Positions 1 to 45,944 of a DNA stretch of 45,944 bases are shown here, one piece after another. The notes beneath the pieces are model-generated. The model saw only the letters and a list, made by a program, of their open reading frames with translations. It was not told the DNA's origin and did not search any database. Each line of letters starts with the position of its first letter. Position 1 is the stretch's first letter. Source of the DNA: a bacterium (GTDB lineage: Bacteria; SAR324; XYD2-FULL-50-16). Made by a program: the position numbers and the translations under genes. The stretch covers positions 1-45,944 of the forward strand of contig JAHJRI010000355.1 of NCBI GenBank assembly GCA_018830885.1, written 5' to 3'.

Positions 1-90
1 CTTGGAAGCCATGGATGGCTTCCAGGAGCTCCAGGAGGATTCATGCGTTTCTTGAAACACAATACCTTTGGGGCGTATTCAGGTGAATAG
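1..90 (+). repeat. Apex-core palindromic element, copy 1 (left part off window)
   Basis: This is the right-hand portion of a palindromic element found six times in the window. Visible parts are the inner hairpin (TGGAAGCCAT at 3-12 pairing with ATGGCTTCCA at 15-24), the GGAGCTCC palindrome, a Shine-Dalgarno-like AGGAGG followed by ATG at 43-45, and the right arm beginning TTCTTGAAACACAATACC at 49. The right arm is nearly identical to that of copy 5 (37442-37607), so the missing left arm probably lies just before the window. The ATG opens a 15-residue frame that ends at TAG 88-90. Confidence 0.8.
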
Positions 91-212
91 TTACCAGCCA
101 GGCATGATAGATTTCCGCAGGAGATGACATCGGGGGACTGTACCTGGTGACCCAACCCTGATTTCAACGGAGCGGTGCCGCAGGAAGGCTAATATCTTTG
201 TACCTCCCTCAG

Positions 213-4172: not shown

Positions 4173-6106
4173 ATCTGATCGCAAAACAGGAAAAGGATGG
4201 CCGCTACCTGTTGATGGGTAACGAAGCCATCGCCAGGGGAGCCCTGGAAGCAGGTGTTGCTGTGGCAGCGGGTTATCCTGGGACGCCTTCTTCTGAGATT
4301 ATTGAAAATCTGGCCCGGGTCACAACGGAAAGGGATCTGTATGTGGAATGGTCCACCAATGAAAAGGTTGCGATGGAGGTGGCCGCAGCCGGATCCTTTG
4401 CAGAACTGAGATCGCTGTGCATCCTCAAACAGAACGGGGTCAATGTTGCTTCCGATTTCTTTCTGCACCTGGCCGGATCCGGAACCCGGGGTGGCATGGT
4501 GATTATACCCTGCGAGGATCCGGGTGCGCTCTCCAGTATTAACGAGGGAGACAGCCGACATTTTTCCAGGATGCTGGAGGTCCCGCTGATCGAACCGGGC
4601 AATTTTCAGGAAGCCAAGGACATGACCAAATGGGCCTTCGAACTTTCCGAAACCCTGCGCTGCCCTGTGATGCTGCGCAGTGTTACACGTCTCTCCCACG
4701 CCAGCGGCAATGTTGTCTTCGGGGAGCTTCCGGTGACTCATCACAAGGCCCGATTTCAGCATGACGGGTTCATCCTGGATCCGGACACCGGTATGATCAG
4801 CAGCGCCCCGGTAGCTTACCGGCACGGGTTACAGCAGGAAAAGCTGCAGAAGGCCATCGAACTGTTCGAAACCTCCCCCTTCAACACCTATACCGGTCCG
4901 GAAAACCCCGAGCTGCTGGTTATTACCAGTTCCGCCTGCAATCTCTATACGAAAGAGGCGATCCAGCTTCTGGATGTGGGGGACAGGGTCGGTCTGCTGA
5001 AACTGGGCACGACCTGGCCATTGCCACCCAAACTGCTGGGAAAATACCTGGCAACGACAGACAAGATTCTGATTGTGGAGGAAGTAATCCCTTTCCTGGA
5101 AGAAAATGTAAAGATCCTGGCTGCTGAAACGGCTGAGACCATCGGAATTAAAAAGTTTTACGGTAAGCGGGATGGCTCGATCCCTTCAGTAAACGAATTG
5201 AACCCGGACCTGGTGATCACCGCTCTGGCCAATATTCTGGAATTGAACTACGAAGGGGTGGCTGCCGCTTACACGGAAAAAGCCCTGCCCCTTGCATTTC
5301 TGAACGCCCCCGTCAGGGACCTTACATTCTGCCCGGGCTGCCCTCATCGGGCCTCTTTCTGGAATATCCGCACTGTCCTGAAGAAAGACAACCGCGAGGG
5401 GTTTGTCTGTGGAGATATCGGCTGCTACAGCCTCGCCATGCTCCCCACCGGTTTCAGTACCACCAAGACGATGCATGCAATGGGATCGGGGACGGGGATT
5501 GCCAGTGGTTTTGGGCAACTGGCCCGCTTTGGCATGGATCAGCCGGTACTTTCAGTCTGTGGAGACTCCACGTTCTTCCACGCTGTCATGCCGGCACTGG
5601 TAAACGCCGTGCATCACAAGTCCGATATCACACTGATCGTGCTCGATAACAGCGGTACGGCCATGACCGGCTTTCAGCCTCATCCGGGGCTGGAGGTTGA
5701 TGCGCAGGGGAGTGAGGCGCTGAAACTGGATATACAGGCTATTTGCGAGTCCATGGGCGCCACGGTGCAGGTCACGGATCCTTTCGATTTTAAAGCGACC
5801 CAGAATGCGCTGTTTGAGATGCTGCAAATTAAATCCGGGGTCAAGGTCCTGGTCCTGAAACAGTCCTGCGCACTCAGTCCTGAGAAAAAGCATACACGGC
5901 GATTTGAAATGTCGGTTGACTCAGCCAGCTGTCTGGGAGAGGACTGTGGCTGTAACCGTCTCTGTACAAGAATTTTCAGATGTCCGGGACTGGTCTGGGA
6001 CAAAGTGAACGGAATTTCAAAAATTGATGACGCGATCTGCTCCGGTTGTGGGGTCTGCGCGTCGATCTGCCCTGTCGGGGCGATTGAAAAAAGGGAGGTG
6101 GCATAA
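4169..6106 (+). CDS. iorA: Indolepyruvate ferredoxin oxidoreductase, alpha subunit (copy 1)
   Basis: A 645-residue alpha subunit of indolepyruvate:ferredoxin oxidoreductase, which decarboxylates aryl 2-oxo acids (indolepyruvate, phenylpyruvate, 4-hydroxyphenylpyruvate) to aryl-acetyl-CoA while reducing ferredoxin. The N-terminal pyrimidine-binding domain contains GYPGTPSSEI and EWSTNEKVAMEVA. The thiamine diphosphate domain shows CPGCPHRASFW, CGDIGCY, CGDSTFFHA and LDNSGTAMTG. A C-terminal ferredoxin domain carries CLGEDCGCNRLC and CSGCGVCASIC (Cys624, 627, 630, 634). Full length for the family. It overlaps the frhB-like gene by four bases and is followed after two bases by iorB, so the three are one translational unit. 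A second alpha subunit lies 6 kb downstream. Confidence 0.95.
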   Translation: MNLIAKQEKDGRYLLMGNEAIARGALEAGVAVAAGYPGTPSSEIIENLARVTTERDLYVEWSTNEKVAMEVAAAGSFAELRSLCILKQNGVNVASDFFLHLAGSGTRGGMVIIPCEDPGALSSINEGDSRHFSRMLEVPLIEPGNFQEAKDMTKWAFELSETLRCPVMLRSVTRLSHASGNVVFGELPVTHHKARFQHDGFILDPDTGMISSAPVAYRHGLQQEKLQKAIELFETSPFNTYTGPENPELLVITSSACNLYTKEAIQLLDVGDRVGLLKLGTTWPLPPKLLGKYLATTDKILIVEEVIPFLEENVKILAAETAETIGIKKFYGKRDGSIPSVNELNPDLVITALANILELNYEGVAAAYTEKALPLAFLNAPVRDLTFCPGCPHRASFWNIRTVLKKDNREGFVCGDIGCYSLAMLPTGFSTTKTMHAMGSGTGIASGFGQLARFGMDQPVLSVCGDSTFFHAVMPALVNAVHHKSDITLIVLDNSGTAMTGFQPHPGLEVDAQGSEALKLDIQAICESMGATVQVTDPFDFKATQNALFEMLQIKSGVKVLVLKQSCALSPEKKHTRRFEMSVDSASCLGEDCGCNRLCTRIFRCPGLVWDKVNGISKIDDAICSGCGVCASICPVGAIEKREVA

Positions 6107-12065: not shown

Positions 12066-12128
12066 CGTTGTGGCCCCACCTGGGGCATGCTGATTTGTAT
12101 GAAAAACACGCATCACAAAGACACGGAG
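12066..12128 (+). repeat. Family-2 dispersed repeat, copy 1 (interrupted)
   Basis: The 30-nt block at 12099-12128 (ATGAAAAACAC...AGACACGGAG) matches 25112-25141 at 27 of 30 positions. It is preceded by a CGTTGTG-hairpin-GGCATG block (12066-12101) that matches 25198-25232. A third block, GCTTTATGACAGG... at 12327-12353, matches 25155-25181 at 24 of 27. The block order differs from the second copy, and the palindromic element at 12154-12324 splits this copy. Confidence 0.65.
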
Positions 12129-12153
12129 ATAATGGAGAAAAATAAGTTCTGCT

Positions 12154-12324
12154 GAGTCGATGTCGTTGACTTCAGCAACTGTTTCCACAACAACAGTTCC
12201 GGTTTTCAAGAAACGCATGAATCCTTCCTGGAGCTCCTGGAAGCCATCCCTGGCTTCCAACGTTCTTGAAACCCGGCACCGTTGGTGCTTCGCAAGAACA
12301 GGTTGTTGAAGTTAACGGTATTGC
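12154..12324 (-). repeat. Apex-core palindromic element, copy 2
   Basis: A near-complete palindrome of about 171 bp in reverse orientation relative to the other copies. The inner core includes GAGCTC and the TGGAAGCCA/TGGCTTCCA hairpin. Inner arms are 12191-12212 and 12263-12284 (19 of 22 pair, plus one wobble). The arms continue outward: CGTTGACTTCAGCAAC (12164-12179) pairs with GTTGTTGAAGTTAACG (12302-12317), the mismatches being G-T wobbles. The element is bounded by imperfect direct repeats TCTGCT and CCTGCT and interrupts a family-2 repeat, which suggests insertion. Confidence 0.75.
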
Positions 12325-12414
12325 CTGCTTTATGACAGGCAGGGGAATGCATCTGCAACAACGGCGCTTGATGGCGCCACGAATTAAAATGGTACCCAAC
12401 AGGATGGAGAACGT

Positions 12415-14352
12415 GTGACAAAACAGACAGAAACCGGGAGCGCATCGGGTCGTCTCTTAATGGGCAATGAGGCTATCGCCAGAGGCGCCCTGGAAGCTGG
12501 AATGAGTGTAGCCGCCGGTTATCCGGGAACCCCGTCTTCCGAAATTATTGAGAGCCTGGCGAAGGTGGCAAGGGATCGCAACCTCTACGTGGAATGGTCG
12601 GTCAACGAAAAAGTGGCGATGGAAGTGGCAGCGGCAGCTTCCTTTGCAGAATTGCGGTCGATCTGCGTTTTAAAACAGAATGGGCTGCATGTGGCATCCG
12701 ATTTTCTGCTCCATCTTGCCGGATCAGGCACCCGGGGCGGCATGCTGATTATCGCCTGCGATGATCCCGGGGCGCTGTCCAGTGTGAATGAAGGCGATAC
12801 CCGTCACTTTGCCAGGATGATTGAATTCCCGTTGTTGGAACCAGGAGATTTCCAGGAAGCCAAGGACATGACCAAATGGGCGTTCGAACTTTCAGAAGCG
12901 TTGCAGAGTATCGTGATGGTGCGTAGTGTCACCCGTATCTCCCATGCCAGTGGCAATGTGATGCTGGGCGAACTGCCCGACACCGGACAGCAGGCGCGGT
13001 TCAGACACAACGGGCCCCCGCTGGATCCACACCGGGGCACCATGTCCAGTTCTCCGGTAAGTATCAAGCATGCTTTGCAGCATAAAAAGCTGCAGAAAGC
13101 GGTCGCCGCCTTTGAAACGTCGCCGTTCAATACATACCAGGGACCGAATAAACCGGAACTGCTGATTATCACCAGTTCTGCCTGTAACCTGTACAGCAGG
13201 GAAGCCATTCATCTCATGGGGGTGAAGGATCGGGTGGGCATCTTGAAACTGGGGACGACATGGCCGTTGCCACCCAAACTGATCGAGAAGTACCTGTGTC
13301 TGACCGACAAAATACTGATTGTGGAAGAGGTCATTCCCTTTCTGGAGGAAAATATCAAGATCCTGGCTTTTGAATTGGCAGGAACCATCGGCAGCAAGAC
13401 CATTTATGGAAAAAGAGACGGCCTGATCCCTTCGGTGGGAGAGATGAATCCCGATCTGGTACTTGCAGCGCTGGCCAGCATCCTCAAAATTCCATACAGT
13501 GCGACGTCCTCGGCTTATGCAGAGAAAACCGCACTGGCCGAATCGACCGTCGTACCAAAAAGAGATCCGGCATACTGCGCCGGCTGTCCCCATCGGGCGT
13601 CCTACTGGTCGATCAATATTGCACTGGGACTGGACAACCAGAATGGTTTTGTGTGCGGTGATATCGGCTGTTACACCATGGATCGCAGACCCAGCGGATT
13701 TCAGACGATCAAGACCGTTCATGCCATGGGATCGGGAACCGGTATTGCGAGCGGTTTTGGTAAACTGCAGCAGTTTGGGATGGACCAACCGGTGATGGCC
13801 GTTTGCGGCGATTCCACCTTTTTCCACGCCGTGATCCCCGCCCTGGTGAATGCCGTCCACAACAATTCCGCCATCACCCTTGCGGTACTGGATAACAGCG
13901 GCACGGCGATGACCGGGTTTCAGCCCCATCCGGGTCTGGATATCTCCCTGCAGGGGGACATTGCGACAAAAGTCAGTATCGAGGATATCTGCCGGGCAAT
14001 CGGGGCCACCGTCGAACTCTGTGACCCATTTGATCTGGAGAAGACCCAGCAGTCACTGCTGAAGGCGCTGGAGAATAAGGAGGGGGTGAATGTTCTGATT
14101 TTTCGCCAGAAATGCGCCTTGAGTCCCGAGAAAAAAGGAACCCGGTTTTTTGATGTCCGCATCGATCCAGCATTGTGCCAGGGGGAAAATTGCGGCTGCA
14201 ACCGGATCTGTACGCGTATCTTCAAGTGCCCCGGCCTCATCTGGAACCCGGTGAGAAACATGACGGAGATCGATGAAGCGATCTGCACAGGCTGCGGGGT
14301 CTGCGCCTCAGTATGTCCGATCGGGGCGATTGAGGCAGTTGATTTGCGTTAA
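12415..14352 (+). CDS. iorA: Indolepyruvate ferredoxin oxidoreductase, alpha subunit (copy 2)
   Basis: A second 645-residue IorA, by eye roughly 70% identical to copy 1 and of exactly the same length. All expected motifs are intact: GYPGTPSSEI, CAGCPHRASYW, CGDIGCY, CGDSTFFHA, LDNSGTAMTG and the C-terminal clusters CQGENCGCNRIC and CTGCGVCASVC. GTG start with GGATGGAGA upstream. No iorB follows; instead the gene converges with an aminotransferase, their stop codons overlapping by four bases. It may share the single iorB at 6109, or act on a different 2-oxo acid. Differences cluster around residues 200-220 and 365-380. The separate leader and hairpins suggest independent regulation from copy 1. 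Confidence 0.94.
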   Translation: MTKQTETGSASGRLLMGNEAIARGALEAGMSVAAGYPGTPSSEIIESLAKVARDRNLYVEWSVNEKVAMEVAAAASFAELRSICVLKQNGLHVASDFLLHLAGSGTRGGMLIIACDDPGALSSVNEGDTRHFARMIEFPLLEPGDFQEAKDMTKWAFELSEALQSIVMVRSVTRISHASGNVMLGELPDTGQQARFRHNGPPLDPHRGTMSSSPVSIKHALQHKKLQKAVAAFETSPFNTYQGPNKPELLIITSSACNLYSREAIHLMGVKDRVGILKLGTTWPLPPKLIEKYLCLTDKILIVEEVIPFLEENIKILAFELAGTIGSKTIYGKRDGLIPSVGEMNPDLVLAALASILKIPYSATSSAYAEKTALAESTVVPKRDPAYCAGCPHRASYWSINIALGLDNQNGFVCGDIGCYTMDRRPSGFQTIKTVHAMGSGTGIASGFGKLQQFGMDQPVMAVCGDSTFFHAVIPALVNAVHNNSAITLAVLDNSGTAMTGFQPHPGLDISLQGDIATKVSIEDICRAIGATVELCDPFDLEKTQQSLLKALENKEGVNVLIFRQKCALSPEKKGTRFFDVRIDPALCQGENCGCNRICTRIFKCPGLIWNPVRNMTEIDEAICTGCGVCASVCPIGAIEAVDLR

Positions 14353-17397: not shown

Positions 17398-17847
17398 CTG
17401 GTCCACTCGGATGTCAGCGGCAGCGCGGCTCAGCTGGAATGAGGCGAACCTGGCCGGTTCAGCGGGTCATCGCCGCCAGGGATGCACAACGACCTGTCTT
17501 TCTGACCGGGTTCAGTCGGGTGACTGTCCCGGACAGAAACCCTTGTTGTTCCTCCGGGAGATTCGACGCGGATTGGTCTGCTGCTGGTCCCGGATTCTGA
17601 AGCGATTACAGCACCCGCTTTTCCATGGCCACGCCCCCAGCATCCGATTTTCCTTTTGACTGTGTTACCGGAAAAATTCCTGCCTGTTCAGCTCATCTCA
17701 ACCAACACTCCCTGCCGGGCAAAACGAAGGAAAAAAGCAGTTCTGCGCCGCCATTTTCCTTCCTTTGTGCATTTCAATATTTTTATATCATTATATCAGT
17801 TATATATTCACTTCCGTGAACTTAAACAACCGTCTCTTGCTGAGCAC

Positions 17848-17912
17848 CACCGGTTCCGGTTTTCAAGAACCCTGGAAGAATGAATGCGTTTCTTGAAAAT
17901 CGCAACTGTTCG
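17848..17912 (+). repeat. Apex-core palindromic element, copy 3 (internally deleted)
   Basis: Left inner arm 17848-17869 (ending GGTTTTCAAGAA) pairs with 17890-17912 (starting TTCTTGAAAATCGCAAC). The core is shortened to CCCTGGAAGAATGAATGCGT, missing the second half of the GGAAGCC hairpin and the GAGCTC palindrome. Two arm differences are G-T wobbles. Outer arms are not clearly palindromic, so this copy looks decayed. Confidence 0.7.
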
Positions 17913-17937
17913 TACGGAACCATTCGCTTAAGGGCAC

Positions 17938-18069
17938 CTTGATTAAATGGTACTCCGTCAGCATCAAAGGATCGGTGTTTCAAGAACCCTGGAAGCCATG
18001 GATGGACTCGTGCGTTTCTTGAAAGATCAACCCTTTGGTGCGGAAGTTCAATAATTCTAATGAATCAAG
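17938..18069 (+). repeat. Apex-core palindromic element, copy 4
   Basis: Inner arms 17965-17986 and 18016-18038 share the TTTCAAGAA/TTCTTGAAA base and CAAAGG/CCTTTGG further out. The palindrome continues to CTTGATT (17938-17944) pairing with AATCAAG (18063-18069). The core is CCCTGGAAGCCATGGATGG followed by a degenerate ACTCGTGCG, with GTG in place of the ATG of other copies. Confidence 0.72.
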
Positions 18070-18286
18070 ATGGCCTTTGGTGAACGCATGGGTTATATAT
18101 GATCATTTCACGTCAAAGCCCCCCTATCAGTATCGAAATATGGAAGAACCCAAAATGATCTGTTTTACTGTTCATTTTAATCTATTCATTATTCTTTTTT
18201 TATACCTAATCTGCCTCTTATAATTGAACTGTATCTTTCAAAGTGGGAAAGATCTTATTCATCACCGTTTCTTTCAGGAGCAGAAT

Positions 18287-19709: not shown

Positions 19710-20280
19710 AGTGAAAACCGATCTAATGTTTAGAGAACAATACATCATTATCCGGTTAGCATTTTCCACTTCAGGACCAGTCAATTGCGGTTTTCAGTGG
19801 AGTCAAGGGGATAGCGATTTAAAACCCTGAAAAACAGGACGTTTTCCCGGAGCACCTGGGATGGTTTCAGTTCGGTGCTGCGAGCCTCGCACCTCATGTT
19901 TTAAATCGGTCTCCCCTTGACGGAGCGGTTGACAAATGGTCTCTTACGGACTGCACAAACCTAACTGGACATTGCTGAGAATAATAGAGATTATCTGATT
20001 ATCATGAGTTTATCAAATAGGACAGTATCTGAAAACCGGTTTATCAGATCCGGAGGGAACCCGATAAAAATGTAACGAAGAAATCAAAAAAACAACGAAC
20101 GATGCACCCCCTTTATCGATTTGAAGGAATCGGAATCTGGTTGCAATTGAACTCATTCTCGACGGCCATTCCCGGGATCATAAAGCGCTCCCAATCCGTC
20201 GAATTCCATACAGAGCCCGACACCCATTGTAGACCCGATGCTGGGGGGGAGGGACAAAAACAACATTCAAAGGAGACACG
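19710..20280. other. 571-bp divergent region with an inverted-repeat element
   Basis: No gene is supported. It contains the 120-bp inverted-repeat structure at 19802-19921. Further right, TTATCTGAT (19991-19999) and TTATCAGAT (20041-20049) include the exact inverted pair ATCTGAT/ATCAGAT, with two more TTATC motifs between, as possible LysR sites. The 17-mer ATTCTCGACGGCCATTC at 20155-20171 recurs at 45829-45845. Confidence 0.55.
19802..19921. repeat. 120-bp element bounded by 24-bp inverted repeats
   Basis: The left arm 19802-19825 (starting GTCAAGGGGATAG) and right arm 19898-19921 (ending CTCCCCTTGAC) match at 22 of 24 positions as inverted repeats. Two small hairpins sit inside: CCTG-AAAAA-CAGG (19826-19838) and a GGTGC/GCACC stem near 19874-19893. 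There is no coding capacity. It resembles a miniature inverted-repeat element or a structured RNA. Confidence 0.65.
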
Positions 20281-25095: not shown

Positions 25096-25111
25096 AATGC
25101 ACCTCCTTATT

Positions 25112-25232
25112 ATGAAAAACACTCACCACAGAGACACGGAGAAAGATAAGCTCAGCTTTATGACAGGTACGGAAATGCATCGCTATTTCTCCTCCTTCGT
25201 TGTGCCCGCCCGCGGGCATGATGGTTTGTATG
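25112..25232 (+). repeat. Family-2 dispersed repeat, copy 2 (uninterrupted)
   Basis: Three blocks shared with 12066-12353: ATGAAAAACAC...AGACACGGAG at 25112-25141, GCTTTATGACAGG... at 25155-25181, and CGTTGTGCCC-hairpin-GGGCATG at 25198-25232. Here the first two blocks are 13 bp apart; in copy 1 they are separated by the palindromic element. The hairpin block is at the opposite end from copy 1. A weaker match to the hairpin block occurs near 45425. Confidence 0.6.
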
Positions 25233-37441: not shown

Positions 37442-37607
37442 AATGATTATTGTATCTATTCAGTTCGATTTCCACGCAGCCCCTAAGGTATTGTGTTTCA
37501 AGAACCCTGGAAGCCATGAATGGCTTCCAGGAGCTCCAGGAGGATTCATGCGTTTCTTGAAACACAATACCTTTGGGGCGTATACAGATGAATAGTTACT
37601 GATGATT
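37442..37607 (+). repeat. Apex-core palindromic element, copy 5 (best preserved)
   Basis: The inner arms 37480-37504 and 37554-37578 match at 24 of 25 positions. Outside these, CTATTCA (37456-37462) pairs with TGAATAG (37589-37595), and weaker symmetry reaches about 37442 and 37607. The core holds an 11-bp hairpin CTGGAAGCCAT-GA-ATGGCTTCCAG, then GGAGCTCC, then AGGAGG and ATG (37548). The ATG opens a 15-residue frame MRFLKHNTFGAYTDE ending at TAG 37593-37595. Confidence 0.85.
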
Positions 37608-41907: not shown

Positions 41908-42267
41908 AATCTCAACCCCGGTTCATTGTGATTGTTCCTGAAGTGTGTATATATCACCGTATGTAGAAATACTCAAGTGTCTGCTGTCGCGGGGTACACC
42001 AAATATATGTGGGTACCTGTAAGCGGAAAGAGGTTGTTTGTTCAGAAAACCTTGGGAGCCAGGGATGGATTCCAGGAGCTCCAAGGATGGAATCATGCGT
42101 TTTTCTGAATAAATAACCGCTTGAAGCGGTTATGATCACAACCCCACATGTTTTTGGTGCACGCCTGTCGCGATTCGACAAGGCAACAGCCTGTTTTTCG
42201 ACCGTATCCCAGACAGCATTCTGGTCTTTGCTGCCTGTCAAAAGAGATCGGCTTACCCCAATCCCAC
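41908..42267. other. 360-bp gap inside the sugar-acid cluster
   Basis: No gene is supported. Nearly half is palindromic element copy 6 (41992-42164). The rest (42173-42267) shows nothing recognisable. The gap is large for an operon in which neighbouring genes are 7-27 bp apart. Confidence 0.65.
41992..42164 (+). repeat. Apex-core palindromic element, copy 6 with 8-bp flanking repeat
   Basis: The ends are inverted repeats matching at about 18 of 22 positions (GTACACCAAATATATGTGGG at 41994-42013 against CCCACATG...GGTGCAC at 42143-42162). Inner arms 42028-42049 and 42101-42122 pair with one mismatch and two wobbles. Here the arm base is TTCAGAAAA rather than TTTCAAGAA, and its partner has changed to match. 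CTGTCGCG occurs as a direct repeat immediately outside both ends (41984-41991 and 42165-42172). ATAACCGCT/AGCGGTTAT (42113-42133) is a competing perfect hairpin. Confidence 0.8.
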
Positions 42268-45320: not shown

Positions 45321-45944
45321 GACCCTCAACCTCCATATAATGACAAATGATATTAAGAATGGTACCTGTAAATCCGCACAGTGTATCGGGTATGAATGAC
45401 GACCGATACCTGGTGTCATTTTTCGTTGTGCCCGACAGGCCATGTTGGTTACTATAGTTCGACCGACACCGGTCGCCCTTTCGGACAGAGAAAACCACCT
45501 GACGTTGCTGTGGGTTTATCCTTTAAAGGTATACTACGCCAGACCCCAATCAGGCAAGAAAGCATTCCAGAAAATAAAGAACACAGTTCACCTCCTTCCT
45601 GCAGCGATGTTCCTGAAACAGGTAAAAACCGACTTTTTCAAAACCCACTAGAAAGCAATCATCCACCGGGACCAGCCCCAGGAGAATGCCTGTCAAAGCC
45701 ATGGCTGGCATCCTTGCAAACCTGGAAACGGTGAATCTATTCTGCGAACTAACCGTGCGATCCTGTCACAATTTGTGGAGTGATACCCAATTTCCATGAG
45801 TAGTCATGATCAATCTGTCATTAAACTGATTCTCGACGGCCATTCATGGCCGTCTTTCGAGGGCGGTCGCTGGCGGGGGCACCAAAATCATGTGGGCAAT
45901 TTCGAATTTCGTTTCAACAAAAAAGAGCTGTTTCTTTCCCGTCA
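45321..45944. other. Right-edge region with weak open frame and possible element arm
   Basis: No gene is firmly supported. A frame from ATG 45796 stays open to the window end (about 50 codons) but lacks a ribosome site and recognisable domains. It contains the hairpin ACGGCCAT-TC-ATGGCCGT (45836-45853), the 17-mer also present at 20155-20171, and a segment matching the end of palindromic element copy 6. A TATACT hexamer at 45530-45535 has no well-spaced -35. Confidence 0.45.
45875..45944 (+). repeat. Possible seventh palindromic-element arm, cut by the window end
   Basis: GCACCAAAATCATGTGGG at 45879-45896 matches the terminal repeat of copy 6 (reverse strand of 42143-42160) at 17 of 18 positions. 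The apex core would lie beyond the window, so membership cannot be confirmed. If true, the weak open frame across it is not a gene. Confidence 0.35.

What the first reader, a model, noticed from the sequence alone, without database searches (positions are those of the whole stretch)
37442..37607. A dispersed family of long palindromes with a conserved apex core
Six intergenic copies (1-90, 12154-12324, 17848-17912, 17938-18069, 37442-37607, 41992-42164) share a central core: CCCTGGAAGCCAT-hairpin, GGAGCTCC, AGGAGGATTCATGCG. Around it the DNA folds back on itself over roughly 130-175 bp. All copies are between genes, in both orientations relative to transcription. I cannot match the core to a named repeat family from memory. 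No element-encoded protein is present, so either it is moved or maintained in trans, or it acts as a structured RNA/DNA element.
Basis: seen in the sequence. Interest (0 to 1): 0.82.

Follow-up and report, generated by a model that had tools for sequence, protein, structure and literature searches.

The report
Jumping DNA carrying paired RNA hairpins
The dispersed palindromes are small non-coding jumping elements, present in at least 150 copies, and three kinds moved by different enzymes carry the same RNA-like module whose two GGA-tipped hairpins look like docking sites for the global regulator CsrA.

Summary
The palindromes are real and not isolated: at least 150 copies of the core lie in this 7.4-Mb genome, with diverged copies in five relatives of the same family. 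They are MITEs, shown by terminal inverted repeats and length-specific target-site duplications. Three MITE families with different ends share the core: A (148 bp, GTAwCTATTCA ends, 8-bp duplication; ends match IS66 remnants), B (167 bp, GGGCACCTTGATTAA ends, 4-bp TTAA-like duplication; same ends bound a broken IS5-family element here) and C (166 bp, CAATGyCGTTAAC ends, 10-bp duplication; mover unknown). The core folds as a long stem enclosing two hairpins whose loops hold a fixed GGA while the stems covary. A second, sequence-unrelated core in other A-ended MITEs has the same two-GGA-loop plan. This resembles Rfam TwoAYGGAY (sub-threshold hits only), proposed in print to bind CsrA; CsrA is present with its key residues. 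Variants shared between copies favour G-U over A-C on the GGA strand, hinting at RNA-level selection; private mutations do not, and copies show no orientation preference, so single copies look neutral after insertion. CsrA binding is inferred, not shown. The host is probably SAR324/Lambdaproteobacteria-type (inference).

The parts
1..94 (+). MITE family A, right part; the contig starts inside the element (ends TGAATAGTTAC)
   Evidence: 97% identical over 92 nt to 37508-37599
12158..12323 (-). MITE family C, 166 bp, type-1 core; 10-bp duplication decayed
   Evidence: a related repeat at 25111-25181 lacks the insertion
17809..17931 (+). Decayed MITE family C with shortened core (core match 17839-17921), interrupted at its TTAA by the B element
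   Evidence: left end read by eye
17932..18075 (+). MITE family B, 144 bp, lacking the second hairpin (22-nt loss); ends GGGCACCTTGATTAA / AATCAAGATGGCC
19795..19929 (+).
20121..20218 (-). Decayed element with type-2 core
   Evidence: E 7.7e-8
37444..37451 (.). Left target-site duplication TGATTATT
37452..37599 (+). MITE family A, complete, 148 bp
37505..37532 (+). Hairpin 1 of the core, CCCTGGAAGCC-ATGAAT-GGCTTCCAGG (in this copy the loop GGA has become GAA)
37533..37551 (+). Hairpin 2 region of the core, AGCTCC-AGGA-GGATTCATGC, loop with GGA
37600..37607 (.). Right target-site duplication TGATGATT (one mismatch)
42021..42133 (+). Type-1 core in an element whose ends were not assigned to A, B or C
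   Evidence: E 1.4e-21
45795..45944 (-). Element with type-2 core, cut by the contig end
   Evidence: E 4.3e-10

Best explanation
These are miniature inverted-repeat transposable elements. Their ends are acted on in trans by transposases of at least two unrelated families: IS66-type for family A and IS5-type for family B; family C's mover is unknown. What the families share is not their ends but a cargo: a module that as RNA folds into a long stem enclosing two hairpins with A(N)GGA(Y) loops. Most likely this module is an RNA site bound by the CsrA/RsmA dimer, one loop per subunit, and was kept in the lineages that propagate. Steps SHOWN: MITE structure, shared core, the two-hairpin fold with covariation, fixed GGA loops, a second unrelated core with the same plan, CsrA gene present. 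Steps INFERRED: transcription of the GGA strand, CsrA binding, and any benefit to element or host. My separate confidences: MITE 0.97; structured RNA module conserved in propagating lineages 0.75; CsrA as binder 0.5.
For: MITE: family A, 83 copies with both flanks, 8-bp duplication in 77% (at most 1 mismatch) and at most 13% at any other length from 4 to 12; family B, 42 copies, 4 bp in 83%; family C, 20 copies, 10 bp in 65% (at most 2 mismatches). Movers: IS66 tnpC remnants end in GCTGAAAAGATAC and ATGAATAGTCAC just past the gene; L301:3-1342 has B ends around an IS5-family transposase (NF033581, 210 bits, cut-off 140). Fold: 29 type-1 cores from 6 genomes, 89.3% paired vs 71.8% shuffled, 33/40 pairs with compensatory change, 0/500 shuffles; 31 type-2 cores, 95.3% vs 88.6%, 20/45, 0/500. 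Loops: in 20 copies from 5 relatives GGA in hairpin 1 20/20, hairpin 2 18/20, neighbouring N free; type 2 30/31 and 27/31; other hairpins in fetched DNA 29/394. RNA strand: shared one-step changes to G-U 43 vs A-C 16, p 6e-4. TwoAYGGAY sub-threshold hits with both loops on the model loops; that family was proposed to bind CsrA (PMC4333381). CsrA present with L4 and R44. GGA spacing of 19 and 35 nt (counted by eye from sequences) fits the 10-63 nt that a CsrA dimer can bridge (PMC7652899).
Against: No transcript or binding data. TwoAYGGAY never reaches its cut-off (28.5-35 bits vs 43), gives no hit for the window copies or for an isolated type-2 copy. Private mutations are spread evenly (core vs other p 0.55) and private G-U vs A-C is even (53:43), so single copies show no constraint. 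No orientation preference relative to genes, so many copies would not be read from the GGA strand by a neighbour. SELEX hairpins for CsrA mostly had four or fewer pairs (PMC7652899), whereas these stems are longer. The GGA-loop reading was made after looking; the 7% background is only a rough yardstick. The shared-versus-private contrast is modest (Fisher p 0.04).
Confidence: 0.55

Rival explanations
1. Same MITEs, but the core works as DNA: a fold-back structure that helps transposition or replication (cruciform or single-strand hairpin), with no RNA role.
For: Pairing extends from the ends to the core; copies are unbiased in orientation and private mutations are strand-symmetric.
Against: Sequence-fixed GGA loops on one strand in two unrelated cores; shared variants favour G-U over A-C; three unrelated end types share it, so it is unlikely to be one transposase's site.
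Confidence: 0.2
2. The shared core is a relic: one ancestral element was copied into other MITEs by nested insertion and recombination, and pairing is kept only by the way palindromes are copied; no function.
For: C/B hybrids with the switch at the core (L225, L227, L236, L242); A inserted in B (L011, L012); neutral decay of copies.
Against: Does not explain fixed GGA loops with free neighbours in five genomes, nor a second unrelated core with the same plan.
Confidence: 0.15
3. Exapted cis-regulatory element: copies act as UTR switches for neighbouring genes.
For: 134 of 136 copies lie outside ORFs.
Against: No orientation preference, no constraint on single copies.
Confidence: 0.07
4. REP/BIME-type palindromes mobilised by a RAYT or IS200-type single-strand transposase.
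For: Palindromic, intergenic, high copy.
Against: Terminal inverted repeats and fixed-length target duplications.
Confidence: 0.02

Closest known systems
Bacterial MITEs (IS-derived miniature elements)
   Same: Short, no ORF, inverted ends, fixed-length duplications, high copy number, ends shared with ISs in the genome
   Different: Three families with different ends share one conserved structured interior
TwoAYGGAY RNA (Rfam RF01731, clan CL00106)
   Same: Long external stem enclosing two hairpins with AYGGAY-type loops; loops align on the model
   Different: Below the cut-off in every copy tested; described from human gut metagenomes, Gammaproteobacteria and Clostridiales (PMC2864571) with no link to transposons found in the text searched
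CsrB/RsmZ-type CsrA-sponge RNAs
   Same: Repeated GGA-loop hairpins; CsrA present in the host
   Different: Two sites per unit, mobile and dispersed; expression and binding untested
REP/BIME and ERIC palindromic repeats
   Same: Intergenic imperfect palindromes
   Different: Target-site duplications and IS ends here

Membership tests
MITE | Terminal inverted repeats | tested here: met
MITE | Fixed-length target-site duplication | tested here: met
   8, 4 and 10 bp
MITE | No transposase inside; related IS with the same ends | tested here: met
   B: L301 IS5-family (broken copy), A: IS66 remnants; C: no partner found
IS66-derived (family A) | GTAA-type ends and 8-bp duplication (from general knowledge), end adjoining tnpC | tested here: met
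   only fragments of the IS66 gene are in the assembly, no complete parent
IS5-derived (family B) | Same ends as an IS5-family element; 4-bp YTAR-like duplication (from general knowledge) | tested here: met
TwoAYGGAY (RF01731) | Score at or above the gathering cut-off (43 bits) | tested here: not met
   best 35 bits; 34.7 and 28.5
TwoAYGGAY (RF01731) | Two hairpins with AYGGAY loops inside an external stem | tested here: met
CsrA-binding RNA | GGA in hairpin loops, sites spaced 10-63 nt | tested here: met
CsrA-binding RNA | Binds CsrA | not testable with these tools
   needs gel shift or CLIP
REP/BIME | No target-site duplication, RAYT-associated | tested here: not met
   duplications present; RAYT genes not searched

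The most novel reading that the evidence does not exclude
Unrelated transposon families in one bacterial lineage have each acquired, some by sharing and at least once independently, a paired GGA-hairpin RNA module, turning MITEs into a dispersed, self-spreading set of CsrA sites (sponge or decoy) that could retune the host's global post-transcriptional regulator or protect element-bearing transcripts.
Probability: 0.35. Interest if true: 0.85.

Novelty: new variant of a known kind. Interest (0 to 1): 0.62.

Why it matters
MITEs are usually defined by their ends and their interiors treated as filler. Here the ends differ and the interior is what is shared, down to two GGA-tipped hairpins, and a second unrelated interior repeats the plan. 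If CsrA binds them, a mobile element would be spreading binding sites for a global regulator through a genome, and it would give the TwoAYGGAY class a biological setting. It is directly testable with CsrA from this lineage in vitro or in E. coli.

Tried and rejected
Rfam at gathering cut-off on the window: nothing. blastn against plasmids and phages: nothing. Exact core patterns in 84,980 genomes: none for one pattern; for another, 12 stretches, 11 from one Deltaproteobacteria MAG and one Bacteroidetes-labelled contig with the same flank as a G001 copy, so probably misbinned. Viral contigs: none. R1 in 14 genomes outside family f1 (one of the same order, 13 of the same class): none; four small-genome members of f1 also lack it. 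A short reading frame AGGAGG-ATTC-ATG CGT TTC TTG AAA in family A was considered and dropped: the ATG varies to GTG or ACG and the frames end at once. Integron attC, group II intron and ribozyme ideas were considered from memory only and not pursued. A raw count of G-U over A-C (p 3e-21) was discarded because it counts inherited cells and a fold biased to G-U; the corrected counts are. PF01609 transposases: only one carries B ends; none carries C ends.

Full report
WHAT IS THERE. The window is one whole contig (C318) of a 7.41-Mb, 496-contig assembly. Diverged copies occur in five genomes of the same family: 32 in G001 (same genus), 22 in G004, 3, 2 and 1 in G006, G008, G009, and none in the other 18 relatives searched. 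Many copies sit at contig ends, as at both ends of this window, as expected for repeats that break an assembly.

THEY ARE MITES. Family A is 148 bp with ends GTAwCTATTCA/TGAATAGwTAC; of 83 copies with flanks, 77% have an 8-bp duplication with at most one mismatch, against at most 13% at any other length from 4 to 12. Family B is 167 bp with ends GGGCACCTTGATTAA and a 4-bp TTAA-like duplication in 83% of 42. Family C is 166 bp with ends CAATGyCGTTAAC and a 10-bp duplication, 65% of 20 with at most two mismatches. Elements nest: A in B (L011, with duplication GATAATTT), B in C (window 17932 in a C copy), and C/B hybrids switch at the core.

WHO MOVES THEM. For B, L301:3-1342 carries B ends on both sides of an IS5-family transposase frame (NF033581 210 bits, cut-off 140; PF01609) next to TTAA; the copy is broken by an internal stop. 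For A, two of the three IS66 (PF03050) remnants in the genome end, just past the gene, in GCTGAAAAGATAC and ATGAATAGTCAC, one mismatch from the A end; GTAA ends and 8-bp duplications are what I know of IS66. No partner was found for C. So one core is carried by elements with unrelated movers.

THE CORE. On 29 cores from six genomes RNAalifold gives a long outer stem enclosing two hairpins. 89.3% of cells pair against 71.8% in shuffles; 33 of 40 pairs show changes on both sides; no shuffle of 500 reaches these. Sliding the partners by 1-3 columns drops pairing to 35-51%. Hairpin loops are A(N)GGA(Y): in 20 copies from relatives GGA is kept 20/20 and 18/20 while the base before it is any of four. 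In G001 the inner part of the first stem has changed (GGAAGCC/GGCTTCC to GGAAAAC/GTTTTCC) but the loop GGA stays.

A SECOND CORE WITH THE SAME PLAN. Other A-ended MITEs (8-bp duplication in 72% of 25) carry an interior with no evident sequence likeness: 83 hits of TTGGGAGTGGTTAA in the genome. It folds with two hairpins, GCATCGCC-AGGAT-GGCGATG and GACAGGC-ATGGAT-GCCTGTC, on one strand; 31 copies give 95.3% pairing vs 88.6% shuffled, 20 of 45 pairs with both-side changes; GGA in 27/31 and 30/31 loops. In other strong hairpins of the fetched DNA GGA is in 29 of 394 loops. Model R2 finds 9 in G004, 1 in G001, 1 weak in G009.

RNA OR DNA. With pairs taken only where both strands' folds agree, one-step changes shared by several copies go to G-U 43 times and to A-C 16 (p 6e-4), while private changes are 53:43 (p 0.36). 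On the GGA strand G-U pairs and A-C does not, so lineages that multiplied look selected for RNA pairing on that strand; single copies after insertion do not. The latter agrees with the even spread of singletons, 134 of 136 copies outside ORFs and no orientation preference.

COMPARISON. RF01731 TwoAYGGAY aligns full length with both loops on the model's loops, but at 35, 34.7 and 28.5 bits (cut-off 43) and not for the window copies or one type-2 copy. I therefore do not file it as a member; the plan is the same. Gardner and Eldai (PMC4333381) proposed TwoAYGGAY as CsrA-binding. CsrA is in nine of ten family genomes, with L4 and R44 (residues per PMC7652899). The hexaloop matches the CsrA SELEX core (RUACARGGAUGU, mostly hexaloops), although stems longer than in SELEX may weaken binding. 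No paper in the library searches linked MITEs with CsrA sites; this is a limited search.

HOST. G001 corresponds to MAG JABGPJ01, 'Deltaproteobacteria bacterium co234_bin29'. The small single-class phylum and 7-Mb relatives suggest SAR324/Lambdaproteobacteria; this is inference.

VERDICT. MITE nature is settled. A shared, structured, GGA-loop module across unrelated MITEs is well supported. CsrA binding is the best reading, near even odds, and untested.

Noticed in passing
window 1 and 45944: Both ends of the contig lie inside repeat elements (family A and type-2), so the assembly broke at them; many other contigs end the same way.
   Followed up: partly
window 12098-12129, 12327-12353 and 25111-25181: A repeat (TATGAAAAACAC..CACAGAGACACGGAGA...CTTTATGACAGG) occurs whole at 25111-25181 and is split by the C element at 12098-12353; similar flanks recur at several C copies (L218, L221, L231, L243).
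   Followed up: partly
L225, L227, L236, L242: Hybrid elements with a C half and a B half joined at the core, suggesting recombination or conversion between cores.
   Followed up: partly
L062, L067, L070, L082 (G008, G004): Relatives carry the core in A-ended elements (L062) and in elements with other ends (e.g. ...TTCGGGGT / ACCCCGAAATGTGT), so more end types may be involved.
   Followed up: no
L247 (JABHCC010000181.1): A contig labelled Bacteroidetes carries a G001-type element with the same flank as G001 copy L087; probably misbinned.
   Followed up: partly
window 4208-4507 and 12454-12753: Two similar stretches, 74% identical over 300 nt, in two 645-aa reading frames; the one at 12415-14352 is a pyruvate/indolepyruvate ferredoxin oxidoreductase-type protein, so probably paralogues.
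   Followed up: no
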